In this document: one piece after another, positions 21,924 through 61,909 of the stretch
Layout: each line of letters begins with the position of its first letter
Numbering within the stretch: position 1 is the stretch's first letter
Assembly (NCBI GenBank): GCA_021464245.1
Contig: JADCRB010000006.1
Span: 620,001 to 684,000, forward strand
Reading direction: 5' to 3'
Source of the DNA: Carallia brachiata
Taxonomy: Eukaryota > Streptophyta > Magnoliopsida > Malpighiales > Rhizophoraceae
Length of the DNA stretch: 64,000 nucleotides
Notes under the pieces: model-generated
What the model was told of the DNA's origin: nothing
The model's database searches: none
What the model saw: only the letters and a program-made list of their open reading frames with translations
Program-made: the position numbers and the translations under genes

Positions 21924-22151
21924 TCAACATTCTACTGAATCATCTGAGGAGTACCCATTAGAAGGCACCGCAGGAGTCGAGGAGTTTGAGGTAGTGAAAC
22001 CTCCATTTTCTCTGTTCTTTTTACCAAGAAAGGTGGATGAAGCCGATTTGATTAGGCCCTTGAAGATCCTGATCTTGACTTGCCCTCTCTTGGGAGGCAG
22101 ATTTTGTTTCTTGGTTTTGGTGGGTTTTAGTGGGTGTAATTTAACCTCCAT
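21924..22151 (-). CDS. Small basic PPKRG-motif protein, type I, copy 1 (75 aa)
   Basis: I do not know this family by name. The protein has a Lys-rich N-terminus, then LPPKRGQVKIRIF at residues 18-30, a short possible helix (LIKSASSTF), KKNRENGG, a Ser/Thr/Pro stretch and a C-terminus containing NGYSSDDS. The same order of motifs occurs in three other minus-strand genes here (36.8, 44.9 and 61.7 kb), most closely the 44,903 gene (shared IKIRIF or VKIRIF, LIKSA, K-N/H-RENG). I chose the ATG at 22,151 because the family motif is about 18 residues in, as in its relatives; an upstream extension is not conserved. It is a single coding exon with a TATA box about 215 bp upstream. The basic N-terminal half and acidic/Ser-rich tail would suit a nuclear or binding protein, but this is inference. 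Confidence 0.75.
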   Translation of the reverse strand: MEVKLHPLKPTKTKKQNLPPKRGQVKIRIFKGLIKSASSTFLGKKNRENGGFTTSNSSTPAVPSNGYSSDDSVEC

Positions 22152-22364
22152 TTCTTGAAACAAGAGATTTGGATGTGTTACAGAAACAGAGCAAAAACAG
22201 AGCAAAAGAGTCTGAGAAAACAGAGTGGAAGCAGGGGACCAACTTAACAGGGTCTCAATAAGCAGACAGACTGAATTCTTGAGAAGAATGGGGAAGGGGT
22301 GAGAGCCTTCTGAGACTTTTGTGGGGGAGTTGAGAAGTGAATGGAAAGCAGAGAAATAAGAGTG

Positions 22365-22374
22365 TATTATATAG
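22365..22374 (-). promoter_or_regulatory. TATA box of type I small gene, copy 1
   Basis: On the minus strand the sequence reads CTATATAATA, about 215 bp before the start codon at 22,151. The interval is free of long frames and fits a 5' UTR of about 185 nt. Confidence 0.5.
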
Positions 22375-22379
22375 TCGAA

Positions 22380-24414
22380 GAAACGAAATAGTTTTCAATT
22401 TAATTCCCACTTCCTTGGCGAGCAAGATTGTCACTGTGCACTTGCCTTGACTTTAAAAAAGACAAAAAAAAAAAAAAAAAGACTAATAAGGGACGGGGTA
22501 AGGAACGGAGGGTTATGCGGAGGAGAGATAAGCTAAGAAAGGATTGGTGGGATCTATAATAGGTCCCATCAAATTTTTATGTTGTTATTTAAATTGTTGT
22601 TAATATAATGATTAAATTTAGTGTAGCAAATTTAAATATGAAAATTCATTTAAGTTTGTGTATATATAAGTTAAGGTTGATATGCAATAGAAATAATATA
22701 TTTGATAATGAAGGTTGATATAGAACAGACATAATTTTAATGTGCGATACACTTGAATTAATTATAAAAAAAAAAAAAAAAAAGGTGAAATTACCATGTC
22801 TGCCCCTGGTCCTTTGCCTTGTCCTTCTATCAGGGCTCAAAACGTAAAAGAAAGTCAATTTTAAACATTAAGTTTTTGCATTTTTCAAGCTTTGTGCATA
22901 ATTTTTTTTAAAAATTTAGTCTAAAACGTTAAGTCTGGCAGATTAATTCGGTCCATGCATCAATTTTTCTGTTACCACTTCGCCTGCCATGTTGTAAGTT
23001 TTGTCACTAATCAACATGTATTAATGACCTCTCATTTTTAAAATGAAGGGGAATTTTTCAGTCTAGAGGGCAAGATTGCACCTGGACAAGGTCATCCAGG
23101 GATGGTAACATCTTGAAAGAAAGAGCGCACGAGGAACAATTATTTGATCTGGGGGGGAAAGATTTAGTGGGAAAATTTTAAATGGATGCTTCAGTATCAA
23201 GTGAATTATTTGTTTCTTTGTGTTTTTTTTGGTATATTCTCCTCATGAGTCATGACTTCAAGGCCCAAGCCACATATGGATATGTTATCACAAGGCGCAT
23301 TACTGGGCAAAAAGGCTAATTAGAGAAAAGTTCAGCCATATTAGTAGCCCAAGTATTTACAAGGAAAGATGACTAAAACAAAGCATTGAATTTTGCAATT
23401 TTTTAAAATTTAACATTAATTTTATCAATTTGCCCCCCCCCCCCCCCCCCCCCAACCAAGTCTTTAGGTTGCTTGTTGAGGTAACATGTTAAGGTGAAAT
23501 AATAGCAACTTGTTAGAATTAAGAGACACGTTAAATTTTATGCTTTTTTTGGGTCCTTATTTAAAACCGTCATTATTATCTACTACTATTTTTCTCTAAT
23601 TTGTTGTCTTTTGTGATAAATTTTGAATTTTCCAAAGAAAAACATGTTTGCTACTATGAGATAAGTTATATGTATGTTTATTATTTTTTCAATGACAAGT
23701 AATTTTTGTTGATCAATGGGGTTATGTTATGTTACAGGCACTATGCTCTGAAACCAAATCAGAAAGCCTTTAGCACCAGACTTATATTTCTTTTAAACTG
23801 AAAAATGGAAATGCTAGGAATGTGTCTCAATAGTTTTATTAATGAGCATTGTGCCTCCATTTAAGAACAGTATGAACAATTTAAATAATTATAGTATAAC
23901 TAACATCAGGTCAGACATAGATTTAGCTCCACTAAATGACCTGATAGCACTTACAAATTTTCTTGTAGGGATTAACAATATGTTTTTCCACCAATTGGGC
24001 CTCAACACTAATTCTAAACAATTCATAATTATTTGAATGAACTTCCAAGCCATAAAATCATTTCTAAAACTAAAAAGAAAATAAAAAGAGAACGCGTTTC
24101 CAAAGCATCTAATTCTTGATAATAAAGTTAAGAATCATATAATCGTAATGACTTTAATATATAAATTAAGATGAAGCGATATGTTAATTTTACATAATAA
24201 TATACAGCACAAATGTACTTTTATACCATATTTTTAAGGTAACTACATCATTGATGCTTTATATCAACTTTCAAAAGGTTTGTAGTGAACAGTTTTAGAT
24301 GGAAGTGGGCTAATTTGTTTGTTTTAAAAAAATAATTTAGAAAATTGAATATGAGTTTCAAGTATTATCTCTTTTTTTTTTTTTTTTTGGTCCCAAGTTT
24401 CAAGTATTGTATCT
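22380..24414. other. Intergenic, with a 21-base poly-C run
   Basis: Contains A runs near 22,457-22,473 and 22,768-22,782 and a homopolymer of 21 C at 23,433-23,453. No gene could be supported. It precedes the C1 duplication. Confidence 0.55.
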
Positions 24415-24951
24415 TGATTCCTCGATTTGCCTCCATTATTATACGGCCTATACATTACGAGCAAAGCCCATGAGCCCAGTTCTCTTCAAACTTTAATCAA
24501 ATGCCTCCCGTTTAACCTGATATTTGGGTCGCTAATAAAAAGCCCTCAAAAAAAGGGGTTTTTTTTAAAAAAAAAAAAAAAAATCTATGCATACTGTTCA
24601 TTAGATTTGTGGGTTGAAATTGGAGTAATTTCTATTTATAACGCTTCATTCAATCACCTATAAAGAGACAGATCTACCACCCGAATATCAGTAGAACCGA
24701 GTGTATCTCTACAGTAAAAAAATGGTTTTTTATTTTCCATTTTCTTTGTTTCTTTGCATCTTTTTGTTTTTGGTATTAAATGTGTTTTTTTATCATAACT
24801 GATAGTTTAACAATAATAATAAAAAAAAAGATAGAGAATGGGGTGTAGGTTTGAAGTACACGAGTATGAGGCACAAGCCCCTAACCATTGCAACAACTGT
24901 TGCACATTTGGGACTTGAAATGTTGACAGTAACGAAACATCACATTTCTTA

Positions 24952-26300
24952 TGGGTATTTGGTTTTACAAACAGGGTGCTGTTGCTATTAAAAACTAAAA
25001 AGTAAGGTAAAATGGTGTTTGGTTATTTTTATTTAGGTGTTACTGTTATTGATAAAATTTATAAACAGTTGTTGATTAAAAAAATAGGGTATCTTTATTT
25101 TTTATTTTTATCAGCAGTTAATGAATTATATAATTACAAAATTATCTTTTAAACCAAATACTGTACTGCCAATTGTATAACGATGTAAGGGAGGGATGCT
25201 TCATAAGGAAAGTACGTCTGTGGAAAGTGATTATTTAGGTTCTATTTGTTTTATCTGGAAAACTGGGAAAGAAAAAAAAATTATAATCACTATATAATTA
25301 TTATTTCATCATTTTTTTATCACTTTTTTTTCTTAATTTTTTTTACTTATTCAAATAACTTATTTTCTTCACTACTTTTTTCTTACAAATTATTATTTAT
25401 TTTTGTTACTCTTTTTACAACTTTCTCTACTTATCTAAATAATTTATTTTTCTCATTACTTTTTCTCATAAAAATTACTATTTCATTTTTCTTTCTTTAC
25501 ATTTTTTTCACTTATCTAAACAATATTTTTCTCACCACTTTCTTTCACATCCTTTTTTCCACACTTTATTTCTCAATCCGACCACACTATTAAGTTCTTA
25601 TCCTGAATACTAAAGACTTTTTGTTTGTGTTGACCTTAGGAACAAACGGGTAGACTCTAAAGTAAATTTTTTTTAAACTTATCTTTGTGAACGATGAATA
25701 ATATAGTAAAAATAAAATGATATTATTTATGAACGGGAGAGAAGCTAAATTATTAATTTTAATTTTTTTAACTTTTCTTTGTGTAAAATATAATAAAGTA
25801 ATATTATTTATTAAAATTTTATGTAGGTACCAATGTGTATTTTTGTCATGAAAATTATATTATTTAATACAATGACTTCTCTCTTTTTTTTTTTTCTCTT
25901 TTTTATAATTTTTATTATGTGAATAGTAACTTAGGCAATAAAAATAACATTATTTTTTCAAGTACAATAATCTATATAGCAAAAATAATATTTTTTAAAA
26001 AATAATATCTATTATAAATTATAGTTGATCTTCAAGTCACACATTTAATAAATTTTTATTTCTAAATGCATAATAAATATTTTCATAATACTAATTTAGA
26101 TTAATTGAAAATAAAAAGATAATTTATTTAAAAAATAAAAATATAATCTCTAAAATGATCATTTATTACTTAATATGCAACAGTTAGTGTTAATTTAACC
26201 AAACACTATTATTTTATTTTATATATTAATAACAATAATTAATAATAATAATCACAATCATTAATAATAACAGTAATTATCAATAATGAAACTACACACC
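24952..26300. mobile_element. Insertion of about 1.35 kb in C1, probably a nested MITE
   Basis: C2 runs directly from ATTTCTTA to GTTGTTACTTG, whereas C1 has 1,349 extra bases at that point. They are flanked by TTCTTA on the left and TTCCTA on the right, a possible target duplication. Inside, GGTGTTTGGTTATTTTTA at 25,015 is inverted relative to TTAATTTAACCAAACACT at 26,190. The middle carries a reversed copy of the AT-rich minisatellite family M. No frame with coding character. Confidence 0.6.
25290..25580. repeat. Minisatellite-like family M, copy 2 (inverted)
   Basis: Imperfect tandem units with TTATCTAAATAATTTATTTTTCTCA and CTTTTTTTCACTTATC, the reverse complement of the units at 13,390-13,640 and 27,925-28,235. 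Confidence 0.6.
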
Positions 26301-28959: not shown

Positions 28960-29236
28960 AAAAATACGGTGAATTACCATAAAATTATCACTTCTAATAA
29001 TTGAATCTTCGATTTGCCTCTTTTATTATACGGCCTATACATTATGAGAAAAGCCCATGGACCCAGTCCTCCTCAACTTTAATCAATTGCCTCCCGGTCA
29101 ACTTAATATTTGGGTCACTAATAAAAAAGCCCTCTAATAAAAAAAAGGCTTTTTATTTTCCATTTTCTTCATTCTTTTCCATTTTTTTTAATTGTCTTTT
29201 GGGTATCATTTTTTTTTTTTTTTATCAAAACTAGTA

Positions 29237-29244: not shown

Positions 29245-32200
29245 CATGGTTGTCAAATCCGGACTGGACCGGTCGGTTCAACCGGTTGGACCGGTGACCG
29301 GTCCTAGGTCAGGTCCGGTCTGCTCTAAGTAATAAAATGGGGGGTAGGACGGACCGGGGAAAAACCGGTCGACCGGCCGGTTCGACCGGTGAACCGGTTC
29401 CAGGTCGACCGATTTTCCCGGTTTGATTAAAAAAATTAAAAAAAAAAGAAAAAGTAAAAACGAAGCCGTTTTATTATTCCCAACCTATCTAAAATTTGAA
29501 AAATCAATTTTCCTTCAAAACCTAGCCGTTCAACGCTTCAACTTCTCTTCTGTCTTCAAGTTCTTCAATTTGTTGCCGCCGCTCTGCAGTGTTGGTCCAT
29601 CACCGTTGCCTATCGTCTTCTAGCCTCGACCACACTCTTTAATCTTCCTTCGCCTGAAACCCCATAAATCTCCATGTTTTAACTCTCTTTTACCTCTCTT
29701 TCTCTCATATAGCCCTCTCTACAGTATCCGTCGAAGCCAGCCGAGCTAGCAACGAGCTTTTGATTCTTTGTCTCCCAAGTAAGCACATACAGAGCTGTTA
29801 ATTTTCTTCTTACCCTCTTCTAATTTGGTTGATTTCCTACCCTATCAATCACTTACATAAAACCACAATTTGATAATTGCTTAGTTAATATTTTATAATT
29901 AATACTCCTAAATTGAAAACTGTTGAATTGATTTATCTCATTATTTCCTCATCGTTTCCTTGTTCTTTGTTTCACTGAGAAGAACGCTAGGCATTAAAAA
30001 TTCGTCCACACGTGAGATTGATTTATTCTATATGTTGTGCTTGAACATCGCTGACAAGGGCTTGATTTTATTATAATTATACGCATCAGAACAAAACAAA
30101 AGAGAATTTGGTTAGATTCACTGTAATTGCAGTCCAAGATTTTACATTGTAGATAATGGACGACGTCGCTGGAATTCAGTCTAGATAACTGTGACAAATA
30201 CGGTATATGTGGCTTTTTTTAATTTTTTTCATAGACTAATGACTAGTTAATTGTGAAAGGAAGCCATGTTTGGTTGCTGAGAAGTGATGTTTTCATTGTA
30301 TATGCCATCAATTTTATTTTCAACATGATTGTTTGATCAGGAATCCAAAATTTCAATATAAAATGTCCTTGCTTGGTTCTTCTGTTGTGAACAACAAAAA
30401 TAATATTGATTCTCTCCAGCCTTTTGTTGGTCAATAGCTTGAGTATTTGCCTGAAGATTGATTTTTTTTTTAAACACCTGATAGTCTGATACTTTCTCAA
30501 ACTATACTAATTCTAATTTTCTTACTAGATAATGGAGAATTCAAATGCTCAATCTCAATCATCTGAAAAGCAATCAACGTCCACACCAAACAGTCAATCC
30601 GTCCGTCAAGCATGTGATCCTGGATGGGAGCATTGCACTAAATATAAAGGGGTGGATGGTAAAGTTGTTTATACTTGCCTTTATTGTAGTAGTAATTTCA
30701 AGGGTGGTGGAATTCATAGAATGAAACAACATCTTGCTGGAATTAGAGGTCAAGTTGCACCTTGTAAAAAAGTTCCTCATGATGTTAGAGTGCGAATCAA
30801 TGACTATATTAATCAAGCATCCCAACAGAGAAAAGAAGATAAAGAGACTATTAAAAATATGTACGGTGATGATGCTTTTGATTATGAATTGGAAGAAAGA
30901 GAGGATGATGTGGTGGAAGTAAGTGCTTCTAAAGGAAAACAAATTTTGCAAAATAAGAGAAAAAAAAGGCTAATGATGGGATTGAGAGCTTTTTTGCTCC
31001 TAGGACGACTCCTGGATCTCAACCAAGTTTAAAGAGTGTTTTGGCTGGGAAAGAGGCTAAAAAGAGAGCTGATATGGCATGGGCTAGGTGGTTTTATGAT
31101 GCTTGTATTCCATTTAATACTTTGCATTCACCTTATTTTCAAATTGCATTGGATGCTAGTCTCGCAATCGGACCTGGGTATAAATCTCCATCTTATAATG
31201 ATGTGCGTGTTAATTTGTTAAGGGAATGCAAAAAAGAGTGTCAATTACTTGTTGATTCCTATAGAGCCAAGTGGGCTTCAAGTGGATGCACTATAATGGC
31301 TGATGGTTGGAAAGATCAAAGAGATAGAACATTGATTAATTTTTTGGTATATTGCTCGGATGGAATTTCATTTATAAAATCTGTTGATGCCTCTGATGTT
31401 GTCAAAGATGCTCAAACTTTGTGCAACTTGTTTTCAGAAATAGTAGAATGGGTTGGTCCTCCTAATGTTGTTCATGTTGTCACGGATAATGCATCCAATT
31501 ATGTAGCTGCTGGAAAATTGCTTCATGAGAAATATGAGCATATTTACTGGTCTCCTCGTGCTGCTCATTGCTTAAATCTCATTTTAAAGGATATTGGTAA
31601 TATGCCTAAAATAGTTGACCTTGCCTCACGTGCTGCTGCTATTACACGATTTGTGTACAATCATTCTTTCTTTTGGCCTTGTTGAGAAAGAAACATGATT
31701 GGAAAGAAATTGTGCGTCCTGGACCAACTCGATTTGCTACTATTTTATTACATTGAAAAGCATTTATGATAAGCAAATTTTGCAAAACTTTGTGACTTGC
31801 AAAACTTTTACAAGTCATAAACTTGCAAAAAGCACAGAAGGAAAGGCTGTCACTTCCATTATCTTAGACAACAAATTTTGGGAAGATTGCTTGGTAATTG
31901 TGAAGATTGTTGGTCCAATCATAAGGTTGTTGTATTGTTGATTCTGATGAGAAACCTTCTTTGGGTTATATTAATGAGGGCATGTATAGAGTTATTGAGG
32001 GAATTAAGAAAATTTTCATGAACAAGACAAGATTCTATACACCTTTTACACAAGTGATTGAGCGGCGTTGGGATAAGCATTTTATGGAAGACCTACATGC
32101 AGCAGCATATTTCCTCAACCCAACTTTCATTTATGAGGAAGATTTCTATGAGACAGTTCAAGTTATGAATGGTCTCTATGGGTTGCTTGAAATTAAAAGT

Positions 32201-33393
32201 ATTTGTGATGATGAGATCTCAGTGATGAAGGAAATTCGAATATATCAAGAACGTCAAGGAAACTTTAATAGACAGGCCGCTCGCAATTCTACCAAAACAA
32301 TTCAACCTGGTAAGTTGTGAATTGTTGTATTCAATTTTTGACTACATTAGAATTTTATTGGTTGATAATTCCTTTGTTTTGAAATGTAGATGAATGGTGG
32401 AGGTTATTTGGACATGGTGCTCCTAATTTGCAAAAAATTGCAGTTCGCATCCTTAGTCAAACAGCTGCTTCTTCGGGATGTGAACGAAATTAGAGTGTAT
32501 TTGAGCGTATTCACACCAAAAAAAGAAATAGATTGGAGCATCAGAGACTTAATGATCTTGTCTATGTCACTTATAACTTAAAGTTAAAGCACAGGTATAT
32601 TAGTTTTTGTGTGAGAATTTTTTATTCTTTTTATAGTTATATTAGTTAATTATTTGATTTGTTTTATATTTTTATGTATATTTTTGCAGGCTTCATTCTA
32701 ATAAGAGATCGTACGATCCCATTGATTATGAGTGCATTGACAAGACCGATTTTTGGATTGAGGAAGAGGACTCACCTCAAGAACTTGACTGTGAAGAGTT
32801 GGAGAGAGAGCTTTATGAGGAATGTGCAAATCCTAACTCAAATAATGGTACTCATAATTAGTGAATAATTTATAAAATTTGTTAAGTAAAGAATTTTATG
32901 ACACATAGAAATAATTCTTTTTATATATTTGTATTTTAATATTTTAAAGTTTATGATTATTTGTTTTGTCTATTTTAGATGGAGGCAACGAATGTGGTGA
33001 CTTTGTTGATTCAGAGATGCTTGATATGGATTCATTTGATTTTGGTCATCGCTTTGGTGCTGAAAATATTATTGGAAGTGAAATTGGACTGTGTATTCAC
33101 GAGAGTGATGATGATAGATCTCTACCATAACTATCTTGTTTTTATGTTTTTTGAACTTGGGAGCATATAAACATTTCTAAGAATTTGTTTTCATTAATAT
33201 ATTGTACTACATTTCTTTGTTAATTTTTTTAAAATATTTTCTCTTTGTATTTTACATTATAGGATAATTTTTTACATTATAATTCTTAAAACGGGTTCTA
33301 CCGGTTCAATTTCCGGTTTAACCGGTTGAATCGGTTCGACCTTGAACCACTAATCTTTCCAGTTCAATAGCCGGTCCGGTTCTGACAACATTG
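29245..33393 (+). mobile_element. hAT transposon with terminal inverted repeats and perfect 8-bp target duplication (4,149 bp)
   Basis: The ends read CATGGTTGTCAAATCCGGAC on the left and, reverse-complemented, CAATGTTGTCAGAACCGGAC on the right; about 18 of the first 23 positions match. Both flanks carry GTCTAATG. Just inside each end are dense ACCGGT/CCGGTT words, the usual subterminal transposase-binding type of repeat. Inside is a plus-strand transposase gene with a 5' UTR intron (GT at 29,779, AG at 30,528, just before the ATG) and three 3' introns (32,310-32,389, 32,595-32,689, 32,848-32,978). The transposase is broken, so the element is no longer autonomous. Confidence 0.95.
30532..33130 (+). 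pseudogene. hAT transposase (BED zinc finger, DUF659-type core, hAT C-terminal dimerisation), disrupted
   Basis: The first frame (30,532-30,960) has a BED-type zinc finger: CLYCSSNFKGGGIHRMKQHL with a further Cys downstream. A frameshift in the A run near 30,961 moves to a frame from 31,041 holding TIMADGWKDQRDRT (first catalytic Asp region) and VVTDNASNYVAAG (second Asp). Another frameshift lies near 31,680. Then come ERRWDKHFMEDLHAAAYFLN and, after an intron, FGHGAPNLQKIAVRILSQ with the ASSGCERN block that holds the catalytic Glu. The Trp codon expected after CERN reads TAG. The last exons encode an acidic tail (DFWIEEEDSPQELD). At least two frameshifts and one stop make it non-functional, yet most blocks are well preserved, so inactivation appears fairly recent. 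Confidence 0.9.
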
Positions 33394-36835: not shown

Positions 36836-37062
36836 TTATCCATCAGTGTTGTAGCCACTGGCTGGTGGGGTTGTAGAAGCAGAACATCCACTATCATCTG
36901 CTCCATCACCTCTCAGAACCCTTCTAGCCTTAAGGGCTACAGATTTAACGGTCTCAGCAAAGCTCTCAAAAATATGAGCTTTGATCATCCCTCTTTTTGG
37001 TGGAAGATTTGTGTTCTTCTCTGGTGGGTGTGGGACGCGCGAGAATTGGATGCCATCGACAT
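36836..37062 (-). CDS. Small PPKRG-motif protein, type II, copy 1, probably frameshifted
   Basis: The minus-strand frame ending at 36,836 contains NLPPKRGMIKAHIFESFAE, then SVALKARRVLRGDG and TPPASGYNTDG, matching the type II gene at 61,664 almost block for block. No ATG lies in this frame upstream of PPKRG. By comparison with 61,909 the true start is the ATG at 37,056 (ATGGCATCC), or 37,062, but that frame meets a stop after the conserved region begins. An extra CG in the CGCGCG run near 37,036-37,041 would explain the shift. A good splice acceptor (CTTTCAG, ending 37,074) lies just upstream of the ATG, as in the 61.9 kb gene, so a 5' UTR intron is shared. Alternatives: an upstream coding exon supplies the start, or the CG repeat is a sequencing error. 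A TATA box is near 37,545. Confidence 0.5.
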
Positions 37063-37538
37063 TGCCTGATGATCTGAAAGATGGAGCCAAAAAAGAAGAA
37101 GGGGCAGAGAAGAGACAGAACTAGCAAACAGAGTGATTCAGAAAAAAAGAATGAATATTTATGTAGAAAAATTAGTTGCTTTGACTACAACAAAAGAAGA
37201 ATACTACAAACAAGCCAAATTCAACTGCAATATTTTAGCTAATTGAAGAGAAATTAATCTGGGTTGATGAACTGAAACTTAAAGAACTAAAGTTTATGCC
37301 TTTATGCTGGATTCTCTGTAAAAAAAAAAAAAAGCAGAGAACAAGCAGAGTCTATTTTTTGTTGTAAATTTCCATAGTGAGAGGTTGATGAAATGAAACT
37401 TAAAGAGAAGTCTGCATCTGACAAGAAAAGGAAGAATATCAGAATCCCAAATTGGTAGGAGAAGAGATTCCCCAATTTGGGGTTTGATATAAAGCAAATG
37501 CTGAGAGGAAAGATGAGGTTAAGACAATAGGACTTAGT

Positions 37539-44902: not shown

Positions 44903-45133
44903 TCACGACTCAGATGGGGCATCTGAGTAATACCCACTTGGAGTTGCTGGTGTTATCGGGCCTGAGCTAGCGAGACTCCCATTTTCCCTGTGATTTTTAC
45001 CAACTGATGCAATAGCAGCAGCTGACTTGATTAAATTCTTGAAAATCCTGATCTTGATTTGCCCTCTCATTGGAGGGACAGTATTAATATGCTGTTCTCG
45101 CCTCTTGGTGGGTCCAGATGCAGCAAATTCCAT
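44903..45133 (-). CDS. Small basic PPKRG-motif protein, type I, copy 2 (76 aa)
   Basis: Starts at ATG 45,133 (MEFAASGPTKRREQ). Residues 19-31 carry VPPMRGQIKIRIF, with Met in place of the Lys of PPKRG, then KNLIKSAAAIASVGK, NHRENGS and a C-terminus TPSGYYSDAPSES. It is closest to the gene at 21,924. The frame continues upstream of this ATG through a CTT repeat that would encode poly-Leu; that extension is absent from relatives and lies in the 5' UTR, so I reject it. A TATA box at 45,305-45,312 is about 175 bp upstream. No membrane segment. Family function unknown to me; conserved basic motif plus Tyr/Ser/Asp tail hint at a protein-protein or nuclear role, as inference only. Confidence 0.75.
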   Translation of the reverse strand: MEFAASGPTKRREQHINTVPPMRGQIKIRIFKNLIKSAAAIASVGKNHRENGSLASSGPITPATPSGYYSDAPSES

Positions 45134-49839: not shown

Positions 49840-51261
49840 TGACCGGATAAAATCCTGCAAGTGTACAGGGTTGATCGTAATAATAAAATCCTGGTGAATA
49901 CTCCAGGTGTTGAACCTAAGGGAGTAAAGAATTAATTATGTTATTTAAACCGAAAGTTTTGTATTTGAGAAAATTAATAAGAATCATAATTATTGAATTA
50001 AAAATTAAACAATTTAACTAATAGAAAATCAAAGGCAAATTAATTAAAACTAACACAAGATAGAGGGTATCAGGGCTACGAGTTTTCACTAGAAGGGAAT
50101 GAATTACATGAATTTTGTGGATTAATGATTTGAATGTCAATTCTTTTTCTTTAGTTAGTGTTCTTTGTCAAGCAACCCTAACCATATTCAATCTATTTAT
50201 GATCTTCTTTCGAACTCATACAAAATAATTAAACTCATTAAGAACAGAGAATTTATAATGATATCATATAAACTTATCTCATGTCTGACTCAAAGTTCAT
50301 ATGTTTATCTATTTAGTGCACGATTGTGTCTCATCTGTCGATCTCAACACAAATCCTATGACTACTTTCATGATGGCCAGGTACAAAAGCATATTTAAGA
50401 ACAAAATAGATAAATCAAATCAAGTTCTCAACAGATAATTGCAATAAAATCAAAAGAACATCTAAACATCCACAAAATCAAATAATCCAACCCTAAACTA
50501 GACTACATTCTTTTCACCCTAGTTTAGGATTCTAGCTACTCATGCTAAAAACCAAAGATAAACAAATATTCAACATCATTAAGTACAAAAGAAAAAGAAG
50601 GGAAGAAAAGGAATCGAAAAACTCGTTTCTGACGTCTTCGCGTTCCTCCCTTATGCTCTTCTCCTCTTCGCTCTCTATGTTTTTCTCTGTCTTGTGTCTA
50701 CAAGATATGGCCTCCAAAAGTCCTCTAATTCTGCTGTAACTTCAGTATTTATAGTCCCCTCAAATAAGCCCTAAAAAATTTAAATTCGAGTCGGAAAAGG
50801 ATTAGTAAATTTTCTGGACAGTTTTGACCCTTATATTTTCGGACCGAAGTTTCGACCCCTTCACGTAGAATCAGAAGTTCGTCAAAACAGCAAAGTTGTA
50901 GCTTTATCTCTTAGCCTCGATTCGGCTTAAGAATCATCCAATTCTGACTTGTATAGAGGAAGTTATGGCTGAAATACCAAGCAGTGCGCAAAACTGTAAA
51001 ATTCTACCGAACCGACCACATATTAGCTTTCCAACCAAACTTTTGGTTTGGTTCTTTGGTGCTCGGCTTGTTTCTACTCCTTCAAACCCGATAGGTTCCT
51101 TTTTCCAAGCGTCAAATACTTCGGTTATGTCCAATTGTCCTAAAGCATAAAAGAAGCAACCGAATTAGAATTTACCACAATTCACAATATTTATATAGTT
51201 AAACTATCCAAATATATATAAAAAAATTATCCATAAACCTATGTAAATATTGAACCTATCA
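49840..51261 (-). repeat. 3' LTR (element sense), 1,422 bp
   Basis: In element sense it starts TGATAGGTTCAATATT and ends ATTTTATCCGGTCA, so it has the canonical TG...CA ends. It aligns throughout with 55,462-56,928; small substitutions and indels throughout indicate that the insertion is not very recent. Confidence 0.9.
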
Positions 51262-51274
51262 AATTCCCCCACAC
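51262..51274 (-). promoter_or_regulatory. Polypurine tract
   Basis: In element sense GTGTGGGGGAATT, immediately before the 3' LTR; primes plus-strand DNA synthesis in LTR elements. Confidence 0.8.
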
Positions 51275-52600
51275 TTGAACTGTTGCTTGTCCTCAAGCAA
51301 TTCAAAAATATCACATGATCTCCATAAAAATTCCATTCAAATCGAATTCTTGAAAGAGTGCCTCATTAACACATTATAAGATCAATCTAGAAGTATCACT
51401 CAACACTTCACTAATCAAATATAATCAATAGCGTTCTCATTCCCCACAAAAACACATTTTACATTAATTAATCATGTGCAAGAACCCTTTATTAATCAAT
51501 GATAACGCTTAGCTATCGTCATATAGAAAGTAATCACACACACTCATCCAAAATCCAAGGACAAATATCATCTTCTCTTAAAAATACAAAACCACACCAG
51601 GGATCAATAGAAATTAATTATTTTAACTTTTTTTTAATGTAACAGAGGCTTTAATACTCTCTCTAAATACTGACATACTATTTGACATGAATACCATCAC
51701 TTGTGGTGTCGGTACCCGATTACTACTTCACAAACAGATATTTAAAGTGATTTGCATACTCATAATTCAAGTTACTTTTTGACGTGAAGACCAACAATTA
51801 TATTGCGGACCCCCAGTTACTCAGTAACTCAAAACAGTAGAGTAGATGACATATTAACAACTTGCAAGCCTTGTTTTTTTTTTTTTTTCAACTCAATTCC
51901 TAAATCATATCCCCAAAATTCTTTAGAAGAAAAAAAGATAACGTTTGTTCAAGTACTTTAAATGAGTGTACATAATTAAAAATTACATGAAAATCTCTAA
52001 AAGCTAGCATCTATCTTTAAAAGATCATCACACAACTTTAAAATTAAATGAGAAACAATAAAATTTTTCAAGTTGAGAACAAGTTCACTACTAACCGTCA
52101 AATAATACTCAAGGACCAACCTTGGATGCATTAGTATTATCATCGGCGTCAAAAAAAATTCAGCTCAAATAGAATTCAAGTGAAGCTCATGTAAAATCAT
52201 GCAAGCACACAAAAATTAGCATTAAAGAGTAAAAAATTTTGGCAAAAAAATCAAAATAACACATCTCCCCCACACTTAGCCAACACTGTCCTCAATGTTG
52301 CAATAAAAACATAACTGAAAAGAAAAGAAAATAAAGAGGATGAAACTACCCGGACAGAGCGGAGGAGAAAAGCAACCCTCACGTGCGCCGCCATCATTGA
52401 ACAAACAACTCCATGAACTAAGTAGCTTGTAATTTGTTGCTTTGCAATGAACATGCTTTTCCTTCCCAAGTTCCTACACACAAAAAAAAGAAAACAAACT
52501 AAATTAAACTTATCAATCTAATTAAAATATAAAATAAACATTAGGTTGCCTCCCAACAAGCACTGTATTTAACGTCTATAGCTAGATGTTTTTCCCTGAA
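51275..52600 (-). other. Non-coding 3' interior of the LTR element
   Basis: No frame of note. A second CCCCCACACTTAGC block near 52,265-52,280 resembles the polypurine tract region (duplicate tract). The GGTTGCCTCCCAACAAGC motif near 52,543-52,560 is typical of Athila-type elements. Confidence 0.6.
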
Positions 52601-53356
52601 TTAAGGAGGATGATCTCCGAGAGGATAATGCCTTAAGTTGCCTCCAAGAACCTTAATCACCCCAAACTTCTTGCTCCAAATATCGATCGCTCCTTGAGGA
52701 TACACTTTGTGCACTGTAAATGATCCCAACAACTTTTTTTTCTTTCGTTTCCACGAGATTGTTCCACTGTAGGAATCATAGAGAAGCACTTTCTCTCCCT
52801 CCTTAAAGTCGCTTCCCATATAATTATGCTCTAAAGGGAGAGAAGGTTGTTTAAGCTCAAAAGGAGCCAACTTCGCAATGGAAAGTGTTGAGCTCGGCTT
52901 TGTCGCTAGGAGAGGTTGCTCAGATAACATCTCAAGTGCACTTCCCAAGTCTATATCCATTCTCTTTGAGTCTTCTTTGGGTGGCTTTGATGTTTCCATC
53001 ATGAAGCATGTATCATGTAGTGATGGACTCTTTAATACTTTGAACACGTTGAATACATGTTCTTTCTTTCCTACCCGGAATGTCAGCTTTCCTTGTTCTA
53101 CATCGATGAGGGTCTTACCAGTAGCTAGGAATGACCTCCCTAAGATTATTGGGATGTCTACATCTTCGTCCATATCTAGAACTAAGAAATCGGCAGGGAA
53201 ATAGAACTTTCCCACTTTAACTAGCACATCTTCAATCTTGCCATATGGATACTTGATGGACCGGTCAGCCAGCTGCAAGACACTGAGGTTGGCTCCAATT
53301 CTCCTATCTTCAGCCTCCTGAAAAGAGATAAAGGCATCAAATTAATGCTTGCACTT
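52601..53356 (-). pseudogene. Protease region joined to an integrase C-terminal remnant
   Basis: Minus-strand reading around 53,290-53,350 shows the active-site block: the catalytic Asp is present but the following Gly is replaced by Ser (CDLSASINLMP). A frameshift near 53,281 separates this from LQLADRS and the rest of the aspartic protease, including VDIPIILGRSFLATGKTLID (flap to C-terminal part). After a spacer the frame reads EGEKVLLYDS and then FTVHKVYPQGAIDI, the end-of-integrase GPY/F-type module, with the usual Gly-Pro-Phe weakened. Everything normally between is deleted. Confidence 0.8.
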
Positions 53357-55193
53357 AAGTCACACAACAACATTCAATACCTAAACTACCAATGGTGTAA
53401 GGGATAGTAAAACTCCTTGGATCTTTTAACTTTGGAGATAGTTTATTCTGAAGAATAGCACTACACTCTTCAGTTAAGGCAATTGTGGTGTGCTCCTCAA
53501 ATTTCCTCTTATTCGATATGATCTCCTTCAAGAACTTTGCATAATTTGACATCTGTGCAATTGCCTTTGCAAAAGGAATGTTGATGTGGATTTTCTTAAA
53601 CATGTCCAAGAACTTAAGAAAGTTCTTGTTCTCATTCCTCTTCTTCAGCCTGTTGGGAAATGGGATTGGCGGAACATACAGTTTGACTTGTGGGAGAGGC
53701 GTGGGTGGCACTGGCTCTTCAATGTTGTCCTGCTCTCCTTGTTCATCATCTGTAGCTTTCTCTTGCAAGTTCCTCTCTTTGCCACCATCTTCTATGGGCT
53801 TGTAATTTTGTTGAACATCGTCAGGATTTCCTACCACGTTCCTACTTCTCAATACAATGGCTAAGACACTCTCCTTTGGATTCACCTCAGTATTACTAGG
53901 GAGTTGACCTTGATTCCTAGTTGAAATTGCTTTGGCAAGTTGACCCACATGTACTTCCAAAGTATTAATCGAGGCTTAGTGAGTGGATGCAACTTGATCA
54001 ATTTTTAGATTCAATTTCCTCAACTCAGCATCCTGTTGTGTCATTCTTTCATCCATCTTTGACATGTACTGTATGAACATGTCTTCTATCTGTGGCTTTT
54101 TCTCCTAAGATTGAGATGGTTGACCATAAAATTGGGTTCTCGGCTGTTAAAACCCTGGTGGTACTATTTGCCTTATATTTCCCTGCTCCTTCCACCCAAA
54201 ATTTGGATGGTTGCGCCATCCCGGATTGCATGTACTAGAATATGGATCATTCTGCTGCTTGTTTCCTGCATAAGCTCCAACATAATTGACGTCTTCAAAG
54301 GAATTTCCAGAATCAATACCCATGCAAGCATTTTCATTGAGTCCAAATCGTCCACAGTACGAGCATTGTTCCTTATGCATTGAGTCTCTGCTCATAAGTA
54401 ACTTCACTTGTCGTGTCAGATCATCAAATTTTGATACCACATTTATTTGTGAAGTTAGCTCATAAACTCCAACTCTACGCCCTCTAACAGCTTTCTGTTG
54501 GGAGTTATTTGCTAGCAACTCATATATGTCATAAAGCTCGTCTGCTGATTTATTACCCACATATCCTCCAACTGCCGAATCCACTAACATCTGAGAATTA
54601 GTGATGAGACCATCATAAAAAAACTGCATCTGAAGAGGCTTGGAGAATTGGTTATGTGTGCATTGCACTAGAAGCATTTTCAATCGCTCCCACGCCTCGT
54701 GAAATGGCTCAGCATCCATTTGTGAGAAGGAACAGATTTTATTCTGAAACTCTGTAGTCTTCTGCGGGGAGAAAAACTTGAGCATAAATTTATCATATAT
54801 CTGCTCCCAAGTGTTAAGTGATTCCTCTGATAGGTTGATCAGCCACGTCCTTACCTTATCCTTGAGGGTGTAAGGAAAACACCTAATCCTTAATTCATCT
54901 GCTGAGCACCTCCCTGGAGGAAAGGTCTCGATAGTATTGTAGAAATCCCTAAGGAAAGTAAGAGGGTCTTCACTCGGTAGACCATAAAACGATGGTAGCA
55001 TGTTATAGAACATGGTCTTAAGCTCATAATTACGAGCTGCTGTACTCAGCTTGATGCAAGATGGTGAAGGACCAATCATAGGCCTTTGAATGTCCTTCAT
55101 GCTAATTCTAATCAGCTCCCTCACCTCCTGCCTATTATTGAGTGTTTGATCTTCTATCACCTGACCATCCCTGTCACCCACTCTTTCGGCCAT
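53357..55193 (-). pseudogene. Gag of the Athila-like element, broken
   Basis: The first frame starts at ATG 55,193 and runs 348 codons to 54,147. It holds the retrotransposon gag core (CFPYTLKDKVRTWLINL, YDKFMLKFFSPQKT, EPFHEAWERLKMLL, GGYVGNKSADELYDIYELLA). The zinc knuckle reads C-x2-C-x4-L-x4-C, so the expected His is Leu. After 54,147 the frame is interrupted for about 190 bp. A second frame (53,960-53,355) has Pro-rich and basic sequence plus INIPFAKAIAQM and TEECSAILQNKL, the gag-protease linker typical of this lineage. Confidence 0.85.
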
Positions 55194-55437
55194 CTCAGCT
55201 CGCTTTAATCCCCGGTTCTGTCAACAAAATCTTTCAATCTCGAGGTTCAAGGGAAGAAGATTAGTACTCTTAGATGCTCGCAATTGCATGCACTACCTAC
55301 AATCGTGAAAAAGAAATAAATAAGTAAACTAAAACTTAAAATAAATAAATAAAACTAAGCTAAGCTAAATCTTAAAAAAATTAAAAAAATAAAAATAAAA
55401 TAAAATAAAATAACAAAAAACATAATTAATGCTCAGT

Positions 55438-55455
55438 TCCCCGGCAACGGCGCCA
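55438..55455 (-). promoter_or_regulatory. tRNA primer-binding site
   Basis: In element sense TGGCGCCGTTGCCGGGGA, six bases inside the 5' LTR. It begins with the obligatory TGG and is the form I associate with Athila-type elements; the exact tRNA was not checked. Confidence 0.8.
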
Positions 55456-55461
55456 AAAACT

Positions 55462-56841
55462 TGACCGGGTAAAATCCTGCAAGCGTACAGGGCCGATCGT
55501 AGTAATAAAATCTTGGTGAATACTCCAGGTGTCGAACCCAAAGGAACAAAGAATTAATTATGATTTATGTTATTTAAACCGAAGGTTTTGTGTTTGAGAA
55601 AATTAATAAGAATCATAATTATTGAATTAAAAATTAAACAATTTAACTAATAGAAAATCAAAGGCAAATTAATTAAAACTAACACAAGATAGAGGGTACC
55701 AGGGTTATGGGTTTTCACCTAGAAGGGATGAATTACATAAATTTTGTAGATTAATGATTTGAATGTTAATTCTTCCTCTTTAGTTAGTGTTCTTTGTCAA
55801 GCAACCCTAACCGTATTTAATCTATTTATGATCTTCTCTCGAACTCACACAAAGTAGATTAAACTCATTAAGAACAGAGAATTTATAATGACATCATATA
55901 AACTTATTTCATTTCTGACTCAAAATTCATATGTTTATCTATTTAGTACACGATTGTATCTCATCTGTCGATCTCAACACAAATCCTATGACTACTTTCA
56001 TGATGGTCAGGCACAAAAGCATATTTAAGAACAAAATAGATAAATCAAATCAAGTTCTCAACAGGTAATTGCAATAAAATTAAAAGAACATCTAAACATC
56101 CACAAAATCAAATAATCCAACCCTAAACTAGGCTACATTCCTTTCGCCCTAGTTTAGGATTCTAGCTACTCATGCTAAAATCCAAAGATAAACAAATGAT
56201 CAACATCATTAAGTACAAAAGAAAAAGAAAGAAAGAAAAGGAATCGAAAAACTCGTTTCTGACGTCTTTGCGTTCCTCCCTTATGCTCTTCTCCTCTTCG
56301 CTCTCTACGCTTTTTCTCTGTCTTGTGTCTACAAGATATGGCCTCCAAAATTCCTCTAATTCTACTGTAACTTCAGTATTTATAGTCCCCTCAAATAAGC
56401 CTTAAAGAGTCCAAATTCGAGTCGGAAAAGGATTAGTAAATTTTCTGGATAGTTTTGACCCTTGTATTTTCGGACCCAAATTTCGACCCCTTTCACGTAG
56501 AATCAGAAGTTCGTCAAAACAGCAAAGTTGTATCTTTATATCTTAGCTTCGATTCGGCTTAAGAATCATCTGATTCCGACTTGTATAGAGGAAGTTTATG
56601 GCTGAAATACCAAACAGTGCGCAAAGTTGTGAAATTCTACCCGAACCGACCATATATTAACTTTCTAGCCAAACTTTTGGTTCGGTTCTTTAGTACTCGG
56701 CTTGTTTATACTCCTTCAAACCCGATAGGTTTCTTTTTCCAAGCGTCAAATACTTCGGTTATGTTCAATTGTCCTACAAAATATAAAAGAAGCAACCGAA
56801 GTAGAATTTACTACAATTCACAATATTTACATAATTAAACT

Positions 56842-56893
<52 letters not shown>

Positions 56894-56928
56894 TTATTCA
56901 TAAACTTATGTAAATATTGAACCTATCA
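55462..56928 (-). repeat. 5' LTR (element sense), 1,467 bp
   Basis: Pairs with 49,840-51,261. It is longer mainly because of an (AT)n run of about 44 bp at 56,847-56,890 where the other LTR has only ATATATATA. It contains the promoter in element sense; a TATA-like site was not resolved. Confidence 0.9.
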
Positions 56929-57081
56929 ACCAAGGACAAGAATTTGAAGAAGTTATCAATTTCTTGGGAGTTTTCACTTGAATAATAATGGAATCAATGG
57001 CTATTTCTGTGATGAATATCTGAGCACAATTTTTCTTAGATTGAGAATTTGAAGAAGTTACCAATTTCTTAGGAGTTTTCA
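56929..57081. repeat. Tail of D-A plus a local 37-bp direct repeat
   Basis: Starts with the right target duplication ACCAA. GAATTTGAAGAAGTTATCAA and the following TTTCTTGGGAGTTTTCA at 56,940 recur with two changes at 57,046-57,081, right where D-B begins. The same block also ends D-B (59,503-59,540). The repeat sits at the junction of the tandem copies. Confidence 0.7.
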
Positions 57082-58248
57082 AGAGTCTGCGCCACGAGTT
57101 TCGCAAAGGCATTGGCTCGGCCCCAAACGGTCCTGCTCACCGCCATGTGTCCAAACATGACTTGAGGTGTGTGGGGGATGACTTGTTTAGCCTACAAACA
57201 AGTCGTGGGGGCGTCTGGCCGCGTTGCTTGCTTTGGTTCCAAACTTCCAACACACCAGGCGGCACCATCGTCATCGAGGGGATGACTGAGTGGGCACCAG
57301 GAGACCAGTGTGGGCCCCAAAAAACCAAAAGGTTTTGTCCGTACAATTTGTGTCCGTAAAATTCAGCTTCTGAATTGCCTGTCCGGTTCTTCTGCGGTGG
57401 AGGCGTTTGAGGTGGGAATTAACAAAATATTTCAGTCTCAGTCCCACCGCCCAAGCTTTGAAAAGGGCCACTGGTGGCTGGAAAAAGTGCTGCGATATGC
57501 CGTAAAGGGCCCTAAAATGTAACTGAAACAATATATTTCCAATAATTTAAAAGCAAGACCACGTGGGACATTGAGGAAGACTAAGCCGGACATTGAGGAA
57601 TAAGGATAAGGAAAAGAAATGGTTGAATTCATTGGCCAGATGCTTCTTTCAAACCATTCTAGCAACAACAGGCACGGGCCGCCAACCACTAATTTATTTG
57701 TCTTAGTAGACCAATCTCTGCGCCTCAACTCCGAAAAAGAAAAAAAAAGAAAACGAAAAAGACTATTGTTTATTAATGAAGGTTCAATGCAGCAATTATT
57801 GTCTTAATCAATTTCAGTGCCCAAATGAAAAGCAATAAAAAAAGCCCATCATCAAATTTTAGAATACTTTAACGAATTCAACAATATTCTTTTTCAGTTC
57901 CTTTCTATGAAGCCCCAAATGTGGAAAGGTCATTAAATCGTGTACTGACTTTTTTTTAATTCATAAAATGAAAAAATAGCTTAGTATATTACAATTTTTT
58001 TAAAAAAAATTGTGATCCTGTCAATTTCCAAGAAAATGTAAAGGAGTGAAATAATTGAATAGTTATGACATTGTGTACTGTTACTTTTAATTTTTCAAAC
58101 ATTTACATGAATCACATAGTTGATTCTCTTACAATAAGACTGTTTTAGTAGAAATCAAATATAATTGTCTGGAAAATTGAACTAGAAAATGGGGGTCCTT
58201 CCATTCACCAAAAAATTTCTAGCCAGCTAAAAACTAGGTAAAGAGATT

Positions 58249-58273
58249 CCCCCCCCCCCCGGGGGGGCCCCCC
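58249..58273. repeat. C12-G7-C6 homopolymer block
   Basis: Twelve C, seven G, six C, followed by A8. It can form a hairpin and is prone to slippage; base counts may be unreliable. Confidence 0.7.
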
Positions 58274-59168
58274 AAAAAAAACCCACCCAACTTTGAAAAT
58301 TCCAAAGTTTTGCAAATTTTTTTGGCAAACAGTAGTCTAGATAGGATGAAAGATATTTCTTCCTTTTACTTTTTCTTTTTTTTAATCTGAATAAACTGTA
58401 AAAGATCTGGGAGTATGGATACAATTGCCAGAGCATCGACCATAGAGATGCATGGCTGTCCAAAGCTTGCGGATCAGGTTCAGGTTGTACAAATTGTCCT
58501 TCAACACAATCGTCACTTCACAAAGAGCGAACACAGGTGGGAGCTGGCCAGCTGGATCAGTTGGATTTTGAGGTGGACTGGACAAAACTAGACATCTCAA
58601 GCCAGGAAATTATGAGTGCTTGTCCTTTGAATGTTGACCTTATGGGGAGGTCAAGCAACCTTGCATTAAAAAACATGGCAGGATTGAAAAGTCTCCCATA
58701 AGTAGCAAGTTGCGTGAATAAGACTGATTAGACAAGTAGAAAAAGAGCAAAGTGATATTGGTTTTTTTTTTCAATTAATAGCCAAGCAATTACCGAGTAA
58801 GGATACAGAATCAAAAATATCAGCCTTAAAAAATAATAGCCTACTAGTATCTAGGCTTTGCTTTGGGATCATTCTTGGCTATTAATATCAAAAATATTAG
58901 CCTTAAACATAATAGCCTGTTAGTAATGAATTTTAAATTTCTAAACAATTCGATTCTTAAAATCTTAAGTATTAAGAAAAGCACAATTTTTTCATATTTG
59001 AATAAAATTTTTTTTTCTTTTGAGCTTGCCAAGTTGCCAATAAAATAACTGGACCATATATGTCGATTTTATATTATAAAAACGTGCTTTGTTATACAGA
59101 TCAGATCACCTGAACCATAAGGTCTTTCTTGGACAAATAGATATCGATTCATTTTGCCATGAGGTATT

Positions 59169-59418
59169 TCTTAACAGAATCCACATAGACCCCGAAAATT
59201 GGATGCTCGAATTTCTGTCGGATCGAAATAGAAGGATATTTTTTTAAAATAACAGTTTTACTTTTTACAATAAAAATAAAATGATGTGAAGTATTTAATT
59301 TTTTTTCGTTACAAAAAATTTTATAGCCGTTTTAAAAAATACCCTCTCGTTTTATTTAGGCAATAATGCAGATACTCTAAAATTGTGATTTGTAACTTTT
59401 CCCTTCTCGAGTCTTAAC
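59169..59418. mobile_element. Small insertion (236 bp) with 7-bp target duplication
   Basis: TCTTAAC flanks both sides (59,169-59,175 and 59,412-59,418). D-A has the site without the 236 bp (around 49,756-49,790). The insert begins AGAATCCACATAGACCCCGA and ends CTTTTCCCTTCTCGAG; no long inverted repeats or coding frame. Class unknown. Confidence 0.65.
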
Positions 59419-59602
59419 AATATTTTTTTGGTGCATTTTAAAAAAAAAACATTTTTCTTTGCTATTTGACTTCAACATTTAAAAACAAACCAAACCAGGA
59501 CCAAGCATTTGAAGAAGTCATCAATTTTTTACAAGTTTTCACTTGAATAATAATGGAATCAATGGGGATTTCTGTGACGAACATCTGAGCACAATTTTTC
59601 TA

Positions 59603-61663
59603 AAATTCTTTTATGTTTCTGGCAAGTTGCCCAAAGTGGCCAAGTGTGAAAGCGCCTTAGTTTTCAAACCATATCTGGTAGTAGGGCATACTTAGAATAC
59701 CACCATAAGATTCTACTCATTCACCTAACCAGTCTTAGAAGGAGATAACCTTTAAGAAAGTACATTTGATTGGATAATGTTTCTTTGTAATTAAGATCCC
59801 CAAACGATATCTCTTCGGGTATTTAGCTGCCACCAAACGCAATAGCTTTTGTCCTGGAAAATCATTCAATCTAGAACCTAAAAATGGAGGCCAGCACATC
59901 TTGGTGAACACCAAGTGTGAATTATTACCACATAACAGGTAGGGACAAAAAAAAAAGGACTGTAAGAGAAAATCAATAATTATGATTGAAGTGTAAGGTT
60001 TTATCCCTAATAATTATTATCACATAGGGATAGTTTAGTTAGTGATTTAGTGTACTTTTTTTCTTTATTGGTTCGAGTTTAAGTTCTCTCATAATTTTTC
60101 ACTCTCAAATAAATGGGGATTAATGTAATAGCGAAATATTGGGTTTGAAACTTGTTAGTATTGAGACTGATTATCAGAAAGACTCACTTAAACCCAAAAG
60201 TACTCGGGTAGTGGGTTCTCCATGTGGAAAATATTAAGTAAGAACGTCAATAAACGACCCTAACTTTAACTCAAAAATACAATAACCAATATACTTGAGA
60301 TACATATTTTTTGTTTCTCAAAAATTAAACGAAACTTGTCCGCTAATTATAGGGTTTTTCCTATATGACAGTAGGAAAGAGAATAAACTTGAAAAACCAT
60401 CAAATAAAAAGGAATCAGCTACCAGTGGGAATTAGCAAATTTACTACATCAATGGTTTTAAATAAAATGCTAATTTGGATCCTACAATATCAGATTTTAT
60501 TCATAAATGGGTCTTCCCAGAATTTCTCTCTAGAACAAAAAAGATCCCTTCCTTGACTTGCTTAATGTATAACCTTTTCATATATTTTGTTACTTTCATC
60601 TAATAGAATTGGTTTTTAATTACTGAAAAGTGTGAAGGCAGAAGAAAAAAAATTCAACCATGGATTCATGGTCCATGACATGATACATTTTCATCAACCA
60701 GTCCCAGGAAATTTTTTAGCTCTCGTCCTCTGGACATGATTTTTCGGTTATCAAGAGTGGCCCCCTATGCGTGGAAAACGGAAACCCCACATCTTGATAA
60801 AAAACAATAAAAAAATAAAAAAAAAGAACCATTATTTGATTAGTGGGCATAAGAAAGCAAAATTTTTCCCTTCAAAAGTCTACAATTCACTTTAGTTGAG
60901 AATGTAATCTGAGTACATGCAGTCCAAATTACAGCCACATGAAAAGCACTTGAAACAGAAGTACAAAGGGTGTCATCAGAGAGATGTGAAAAGTAAATAG
61001 GCGGGAGATATGATTTCTTATTATAGGGTCAAAATTGTCCCCTTAAAATAGAGAAAACAAAAATAGACAATTGTATTAAATCCACTTCTCCTGTCTGCCA
61101 AAATTTTCCTAACTACAGAAGGCCATGGAATATCCAAGAATGTCCCTTCAAAACTATCCAAAAAGATGGCTATGGATATCATGTCACTCTTTATTGAAGG
61201 AACAAAAATCCAATACCCCAAAAAACAAGAATTAATTTTTGGACAAACTCCATTAGGAAAAGAAACTAAAGTACGTAAAGCTAACATATAATATTGGCTG
61301 CCATTAAATCTTGAACAATACAACAACATCAGACTGACCCAACTTTTATTTAGTATCACAAACCAATAGACAGACAGACAGACAGACCAAACACAACCAC
61401 CCTATTCCAAGTATATCGTGTCCTACTCTAAAACTGCAGAACGATAGTGGAAATGACACTGCTTTAATCTAAAGCAGAACGAAACAAAATTGAATGAAAA
61501 CAGAAGGCTGTGACTTTAAAATATCCACAGCTTCAGCAAGCATTGCCTTTTTCCAATATAAACAAACAAGACAGGAAAAAAAGGCTGGAAAGACACAAAC
61601 ATGAGTGAGAATTTGAGATTATTTGGAGACCCAATTGTTAAAAAAAACTGGGCATCCATCAGA
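59603..61663. other. Intergenic, and 3' flank of type II small gene, copy 2
   Basis: No gene supported. A (GACA)n run of about four units is at 61,371-61,386. Sequence near 61,500-61,663 is probably the 3' UTR of the minus-strand gene. Confidence 0.5.
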
Positions 61664-61909
61664 TCATGGTCGAGAGATATCAGGATTGGCATCAGAATTA
61701 TATGCACTTGCAGGTGGGGTTGCAGAGGCAGAACTGGTCCCATCTCCACCTTGTCCCTTTCCATTTCTTTTCAAAGCTTCCCCTGCCTTGGTGGCCACGG
61801 AGGCAATAGCCTTGGAAAAGCTCTCAAAAATCTGAGCTTTGATCTTGCCTCTTTTTGGGGGCAAAGTTGCAGTCTTGTTCTTTTGGGAAGCAGAAGGATT
61901 GGTAGCCAT
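61664..61909 (-). CDS. Small PPKRG-motif protein, type II, copy 2 (81 aa)
   Basis: Starts at ATG 61,909 (MATNPSASQKNK). Residues 16-28 are LPPKRGKIKAQIF, followed by ESFSKAIASVATKAGEALKR, which could form a helix, then a Gly-rich stretch and TPPASAYNSD near residue 64-73. It is the intact counterpart of the frame at 36,836. A CTTGCAG splice acceptor lies 10 bases before the ATG, so there is probably a 5' UTR intron. A TATA-like element is near 62,235. Overall it is basic in the first two thirds. I do not recognise the family name. It shares no CDK-inhibitor, zinc-finger or signal-peptide signature. Confidence is high that it is a real gene because the motifs recur in four places in the same order and strand. 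Confidence 0.8.
   Translation of the reverse strand: MATNPSASQKNKTATLPPKRGKIKAQIFESFSKAIASVATKAGEALKRNGKGQGGDGTSSASATPPASAYNSDANPDISRP

What the first reader, a model, noticed from the sequence alone, without database searches (positions are those of the whole stretch)
21924..61909. Alternating array of four small PPKRG-motif genes (type I, II, I, II) across 40 kb
Four minus-strand frames of 75-81 residues share LPPKRG (or PPMRG) followed by x-I/V-K-x-x-IF and a C-terminal Pro/Ser-Tyr-x-S/T-D motif. Pairwise, 22.0 kb resembles 45.0 kb and 37.0 kb resembles 61.8 kb, and only the type II genes show a clear splice acceptor just before the ATG. The order I-II-I-II suggests that an ancestral two-gene block was duplicated, after which the intergenic parts diverged and expanded. 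I cannot name the family; a clustered family of short basic proteins is a good candidate for an undescribed regulatory set.
Basis: partly seen in the sequence, partly recalled or inferred. Interest (0 to 1): 0.75.

Follow-up and report, generated by a model that had tools for sequence, protein, structure and literature searches.

The report
Ancient cluster of small plant proteins
Four short genes here, with a fifth just beyond the window, belong to an unnamed family of small basic plant proteins that often sits beside the same fatty-acid-synthesis gene in other flowering plants; what the proteins do is unknown.

Summary
A profile built only from other plants' proteins finds exactly these four frames in the window (E 4e-32 to 9e-17; next best 1.2). 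Two corrections. The 37-kb copy has no usable ATG: its homologous ATG (37056) is out of frame with PPKRG. And the array runs on: an intact fifth, type II copy lies 6 kb past the window end, giving I-II-I-II-II. Types I and II are old groups; type II is well supported, type I less so. The array lies beside MECR (mitochondrial trans-2-enoyl-CoA/ACP reductase, 14909-17821). By locus tags a PPKRG gene lies near MECR in 11 of 17 genomes comparable in the listed rows, so the cluster looks ancient. One block duplication before the split from Jatropha stays possible (both pairs dS 1.11). No Pfam match above cut-off, no PDB match, and no paper with the motif strings. No named Brassicaceae or grass homologue was listed. 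Function is inferred only: a soluble basic adaptor made of a PPKRG motif, a short helix and a C-terminal TPPxSxYNSD motif.

The parts
21924..22151 (-). Type I gene, 75 aa, no acceptor before the ATG
36836..37056 (-). Type II copy; the homologous ATG (37056) is out of frame with PPKRG: probable pseudogene or assembly error
37066..37076 (-). Two candidate splice acceptor CAGs before the 37-kb copy
44903..45133 (-). Type I gene, 76 aa
61664..61909 (-). Type II gene, 81 aa; same protein also on contig C150; near-identical fifth copy at 70084-70329 outside the window
61919..61921 (-). Candidate splice acceptor CAG 9 nt before the ATG, also present in the fifth copy
14909..17821 (+). MECR gene (mitochondrial trans-2-enoyl-CoA / enoyl-ACP reductase), ten exons, 379 aa; syntenic anchor of the array

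Best explanation
The array is the local copy of an old plant gene cluster. It encodes two long-separated types (I and II) of a small, basic, probably intracellular protein family without a name, kept near the MECR gene in many eudicots. In this plant (Malpighiales) the cluster has grown to five copies (I-II-I-II-II), one of them probably disabled, and broken type I copies lie elsewhere in the genome. How it most likely works (inferred, not shown): the protein has no recognised catalytic domain and acts as a small adaptor or competitive regulator in nucleus or cytosol through two short conserved motifs, the basic LPPKRGQ[IV]K leading into a short helix and the flexible-tail TPPxSxYNSD motif, so that types I and II bind related partners with different preference. 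About 0.85 for family, types and old locus; about 0.3 for the adaptor mechanism.
For: Exactly four window frames match a plant-only profile. Homologues: 129 at E<=1 (120 listed) and 106 at E<=0.01. Type I and II sides split at 98/85; type II clade 97/93. A PPKRG gene near MECR by locus tag in 11 of the 17 genomes with tags for both in the listed rows, 10 of these 11 with the same longest-contig length for both genes. Constraint: dN/dS about 0.32 for both pairs; ORF windows 96-99% identical between the 61.8- and 70-kb copies against 56-85% upstream of the leader. Shape: median pI 10.0 in 172 members scored of 176, tail motif [YF]x[ST][DE] in 109 of 172, no run of nine or more hydrophobic/Gly residues in the first 35 residues of 175 of 176; invariant P, P, R, G, K in the motif over 66 rows; one predicted helix, residues 22-44, the rest without regular structure.
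Against: No expression, localisation or partner data. Structure confidence is low (mean pLDDT 64, pTM 0.24). The helix beats 95% of its own shuffles in only 24 of 172 members (8.6 expected), so amphipathicity is weak. The tail motif is missing in 63 of 172. In 6 of 17 genomes the listed PPKRG genes are not near MECR, and Rhamnella and Lonicera also have a type II gene far from it. The only asterid with the linkage is Lonicera, with type I; both types beside MECR in one genome were seen only in Jatropha and here. Type I is weak in the second tree (73/84), with asterid and Sesbania rows outside it.
Confidence: 0.5

Rival explanations
1. A two-gene block (I-II) was duplicated once, before the split from Jatropha; a later tandem duplication added the fifth copy.
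For: Equal dS of 1.11 in both pairs; Jatropha neighbours 05607/05605 nearest 45 kb/61.8 kb; the fifth copy lies in a tandem repeat of the 61.8-kb region.
Against: No similarity between blocks beyond the coding cores; neither pair is sister in the best trees; dS rests on about 50 sites per pair, is near saturation, and equality may be chance.
Confidence: 0.35
2. Precursors of secreted signalling peptides whose C-terminal conserved motif is the mature peptide.
For: Short proteins with a conserved C-terminal motif after a variable linker.
Against: A run of nine or more hydrophobic/Gly residues in the first 35 residues in only 1 of 176 members (a crude test, no signal-peptide predictor); the basic PPKRG part is the most conserved stretch.
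Confidence: 0.06
3. Decaying relics or chance frames without present function.
For: The 37-kb copy is frameshifted, and the C110 and C2 copies are disabled.
Against: Three window copies and the fifth are intact; dN/dS about 0.32; the 61.8-kb protein is identical on C150 and 95% identical in the fifth copy.
Confidence: 0.05

Closest known systems
Uncharacterised plant proteins such as Jatropha JCGZ_05607 / JCGZ_05605, Manihot MANES_11G138900 and A0A2C9V2E4, Quercus RGQ29_000499 / 000501
   Same: Same family by profile search; the Jatropha pair is also near MECR JCGZ_05611
   Different: Named only hypothetical or uncharacterised; no function on record in the listings
SDA (small defense-associated) family, Arabidopsis SDA1 (PMC7283558: outline with abstract, and passages seen)
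   Same: Small (86 aa), basic (pI 10.17), plant-specific, clustered as a small family
   Different: Defined by an N-terminal (S/G)WA(D/E)QWD; the four window proteins contain no tryptophan
ACRE75 of Solanaceae (PMC7821246: passages seen)
   Same: Small-protein gene for which that paper found no clear Arabidopsis orthologue; GFP fusions nuclear and nucleolar

Membership tests
Unnamed PPKRG family (defined here) | Match to a profile of plant homologues made without the window sequences | tested here: met
   4 of 4, E 4.3e-32 to 9.1e-17
Unnamed PPKRG family (defined here) | Intact ATG-to-stop frame holding the motif | tested here: inconclusive
   Met by 22, 45, 61.8 kb and the fifth copy; not met by 37 kb
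Unnamed PPKRG family (defined here) | Position near MECR | tested here: met
   MECR 4.1 kb from the first copy; in other plants 11 of 17 by locus tag
SDA family | N-terminal (S/G)WA(D/E)QWD domain | tested here: not met
   No tryptophan in the four proteins; motif as given in PMC7283558
ACRE75 | Sequence similarity to ACRE75 | not tested
   Sequence not held; no hit named so
Any Pfam family | Score above the gathering cut-off | tested here: not met
   0 of 4; only AAA_lid_10 at E 0.21, 12.2 bits against a cut-off of 23.2, for one protein
Secreted peptide precursors | N-terminal signal peptide | tested here: inconclusive
   Crude hydrophobic-run test, 1 of 176 positive; no predictor run

The most novel reading that the evidence does not exclude
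An undescribed seed-plant family of small regulatory proteins, in two types kept next to MECR for over 100 million years (age of the rosid-asterid split recalled) and lost in Brassicaceae and grasses, so that the main model plants hid it; its genes may share regulation with the mitochondrial fatty-acid-synthesis gene beside them.
Probability: 0.3. Interest if true: 0.7.

Novelty: new member of a known kind. Interest (0 to 1): 0.45.

Why it matters
It gives a definable family (two types, a profile, a syntenic anchor) to proteins now listed as hypothetical or given unlike names ('Junctophilin-1 like', 'receptor-like kinase 1', 'Myb-related transcription factor, partner of profilin like'), and a possible reason why it was overlooked: the searches listed no named Brassicaceae or grass member. 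Synteny with MECR would let small, often unannotated copies be found in other eudicot genomes.

Tried and rejected
SDA1: recalled as a candidate, looked up, rejected for lack of its motif. ACRE75: looked up, left untested for want of its sequence. At3g45730, recalled as an Arabidopsis gene near MECR: 2 papers, listing only, nothing usable. Literature: motif strings 0 papers (figures are not held, so printed alignments would be missed), locus names 0, general terms 0, MECR plus microsynteny 1 coral paper, listing only. PDB profile search 0; Rfam 0 and tRNA 0 in the window. No fold search was made because the model is poor. A query of the own genome with a member that lacks the YxSD tail did not complete, so the number of dispersed members is a lower bound. 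MAP-kinase docking and calmodulin-binding readings of the basic helix were considered; no call tests them and they are not claimed.

Full report
OBSERVATION. Searches show the four minus-strand frames. To test chance, I built a profile from plant homologues alone and searched all 1563 six-frame pieces of 25 aa or more in the window. Exactly the four score (E 4.3e-32, 1e-21, 1.3e-19, 9.1e-17); the next is 1.2. The homologues had been found with the four as query, so this is not fully independent; but each of the four alone also finds plant proteins at E<1e-3 at full database size: 17, 8, 51 and 61 of the 120 then held for 22, 45, 37 and 61.8 kb.

CORRECTIONS. The 37-kb copy is not a clean ORF. 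Its ATG homologous to that of the 61.8-kb gene lies at 37056 and reads into a stop in another frame; the PPKRG frame has no ATG before the motif. Between ATG and motif it is 5 bases longer than the 61.8-kb gene, not a multiple of three. It is a young pseudogene or an assembly error; dN/dS against the 61.8-kb copy (0.35/1.11) equals that of the intact pair, so much of its history was probably under constraint. The array also runs on past the window: contig C113 carries a fifth, intact, type II copy about 8.4 kb beyond the 61.8-kb gene, and no further one in the 124 kb examined. Its ORF differs from the 61.8-kb ORF at 5 of 243 bases, 1 of them silent. Identity runs at 96-99% in windows inside the ORF, mostly 84-90% in the leader, 87-97% for about 550 bases downstream, 56-85% upstream of the leader and 58-94% further downstream: a tandem duplication with a constrained, or converted, gene core.

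OTHER COPIES. Contig C150 matches C113 at 97.1% and 99.1% over two stretches that span window coordinates 47840 to 78705, and holds the 61.8-kb gene and the fifth copy; beyond 47840 only short repeat matches to the 124 kb were found. It may be an allele with a rearrangement, or a misjoin. Type I copies on C110 (frameshifted) and C2 (a fragment with a stop) resemble the 45-kb gene at 81-82% of DNA over 370 and 158 bases.

FAMILY. Protein searches found 129 members at E<=1 (120 listed) and 106 at E<=0.01. The named sources are nearly all eudicots; coconut (6.2e-7), Cryptomeria (7.1e-4) and a record Gb_35327, which I take from recall to be Ginkgo (8.0e-4), are outliers. No named hit is from Brassicaceae or grasses. 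For Brassicaceae there is a control: the same database returned Arabidopsis, Camelina, Arabis and Eutrema proteins for MECR; the listed rows give no such control for grasses. Papaya, a relative of Brassicaceae (recalled), has a type II member. The search needs shared 5-residue words, so this is an apparent absence only. Some members carry the PPKRG module twice (for example P0076, P0071, P0121). Many unnamed hits lie on contigs of 0.5-4 kb that may be transcripts (inference).

TREES. Types I and II are opposite sides of one branch in a 53-row tree (98/85). In a second, 49-row tree the type II clade is 97/93, while type I is weak (73/84) and the Lonicera, Sarracenia, three unnamed and Sesbania type I rows fall outside it. 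The 45-kb gene goes with Jatropha JCGZ_05607 (99/52 and 98/79). The 61.8-kb gene goes with JCGZ_05605 in the first tree (95/87); in the second it sits in a group of five with the fifth copy, 37 kb, JCGZ_05605 and P0091 (80/77). The 22-kb gene goes with a trimmed cassava row in the second tree (93/75). Holding 22+45 or 37+61(+70) together is not rejected (AU p 0.43 and 0.29; 0.30 and 0.29); holding all four together is (p 0.005), as is 22+61 (p 0.02). Both trees rest on 80 columns.

LOCUS. Upstream of the array lies an intact ten-exon MECR gene, the only place found in the genome. A quick tree puts it in a 13-row group whose named rows are all Malpighiales (94; order recalled). Reading locus tags by eye from the listed rows, 17 genomes have tags for both gene kinds. 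In 11 a PPKRG gene lies near MECR: Jatropha (tag differences 4 and 6), Carpinus (4, 5), Rubroshorea SLEP1 (3), Shorea SLA2020 (30, probably 3 genes), Carya (200, probably 2 genes), Xanthoceras (13), Rhamnella (3), Diplodiscus (200, probably 2 genes), Pistacia integerrima (3), Lonicera (2) and Acacia crassicarpa (2). The linked gene is type I in 8 of these and type II in 4, both in Jatropha. In 10 of the 11 (not Carya) both genes show the same longest-contig length. In six it is not near: SLE2022, Repub, LWI29, Ptkin, L1049 (377 and 1197 tags away) and HHK36. Rhamnella (RR04418, 1114 tags away) and Lonicera (LguiB_031278) have a further type II gene elsewhere. With tens of thousands of genes per genome such closeness by chance is very unlikely (inference). 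The step back to before rosids and asterids rests on Lonicera alone.

DUPLICATION. Self-BLAST joins the two blocks only in the coding cores. Both pairs show dS 1.11, with dN 0.36 and 0.35. A single block duplication older than the split from Jatropha fits; a recent one does not. The other repeats (26-29 kb with 33-36 kb; 47-50 kb with 57-60 and 65-68 kb; 49840-51254 with 55462-56893) lie within blocks and are no evidence for block duplication.

MECHANISM. Sequence gives a basic protein (median pI 10.0; above 9 in 154 of 172), no long hydrophobic run near the N-terminus in 175 of 176, invariant P, P, R, G and K in the motif over 66 rows, a tail [YF]x[ST][DE] in 109 of 172 and an S/T-P in the C-terminal part of 133 of 172. 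The model has one helix (22-44) and low confidence. Helix amphipathicity exceeds 95% of shuffles in 24 of 172, 8.6 expected, and for none of the four window helices clearly (0.05-0.16). I therefore commit, at about 0.3, to a two-motif adaptor inside the cell; partners and place are unknown.

VERDICT. A real and old family with a conserved locus, unnamed in the libraries searched; ordinary in kind (small plant proteins of unknown role), of moderate interest because of its age, synteny and apparent absence from the main model plants.

Noticed in passing
47840 (C113:667840 against C150:930778): Two contigs that match at 97-99% part company here: C150 holds the 61.8-kb and fifth copies but not the 22-, 37- and 45-kb copies or MECR. 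Haplotype rearrangement or misassembly.
   Followed up: partly
49840-56893: Two 1.4-kb direct repeats 92% alike flank gag-like frames (52604-55220, minus): probably an LTR retrotransposon, recognised by eye.
   Followed up: no
30529-32317: Frames that by eye look like a hAT-type transposase; not checked with a library.
   Followed up: no
7550-12623: Two diverged copies of broken kinase-like frames on the minus strand, recognised by eye.
   Followed up: no
61107-61660: About 550 bases downstream of the 61.8-kb ORF are 87-97% identical to the fifth copy's downstream, falling to 58% beyond: conserved 3' region or gene conversion tract.
   Followed up: partly
L031 (C110:1311788-1311961) and L032 (C2:4104057-4104212): Dispersed, disabled type I copies close to the 45-kb gene, limited to the gene and short flanks.
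   Followed up: partly
P0028, P0040, P0071, P0076, P0090, P0114, P0121 (other plants): Family members that carry the PPKRG-helix module twice in one protein.
   Followed up: no
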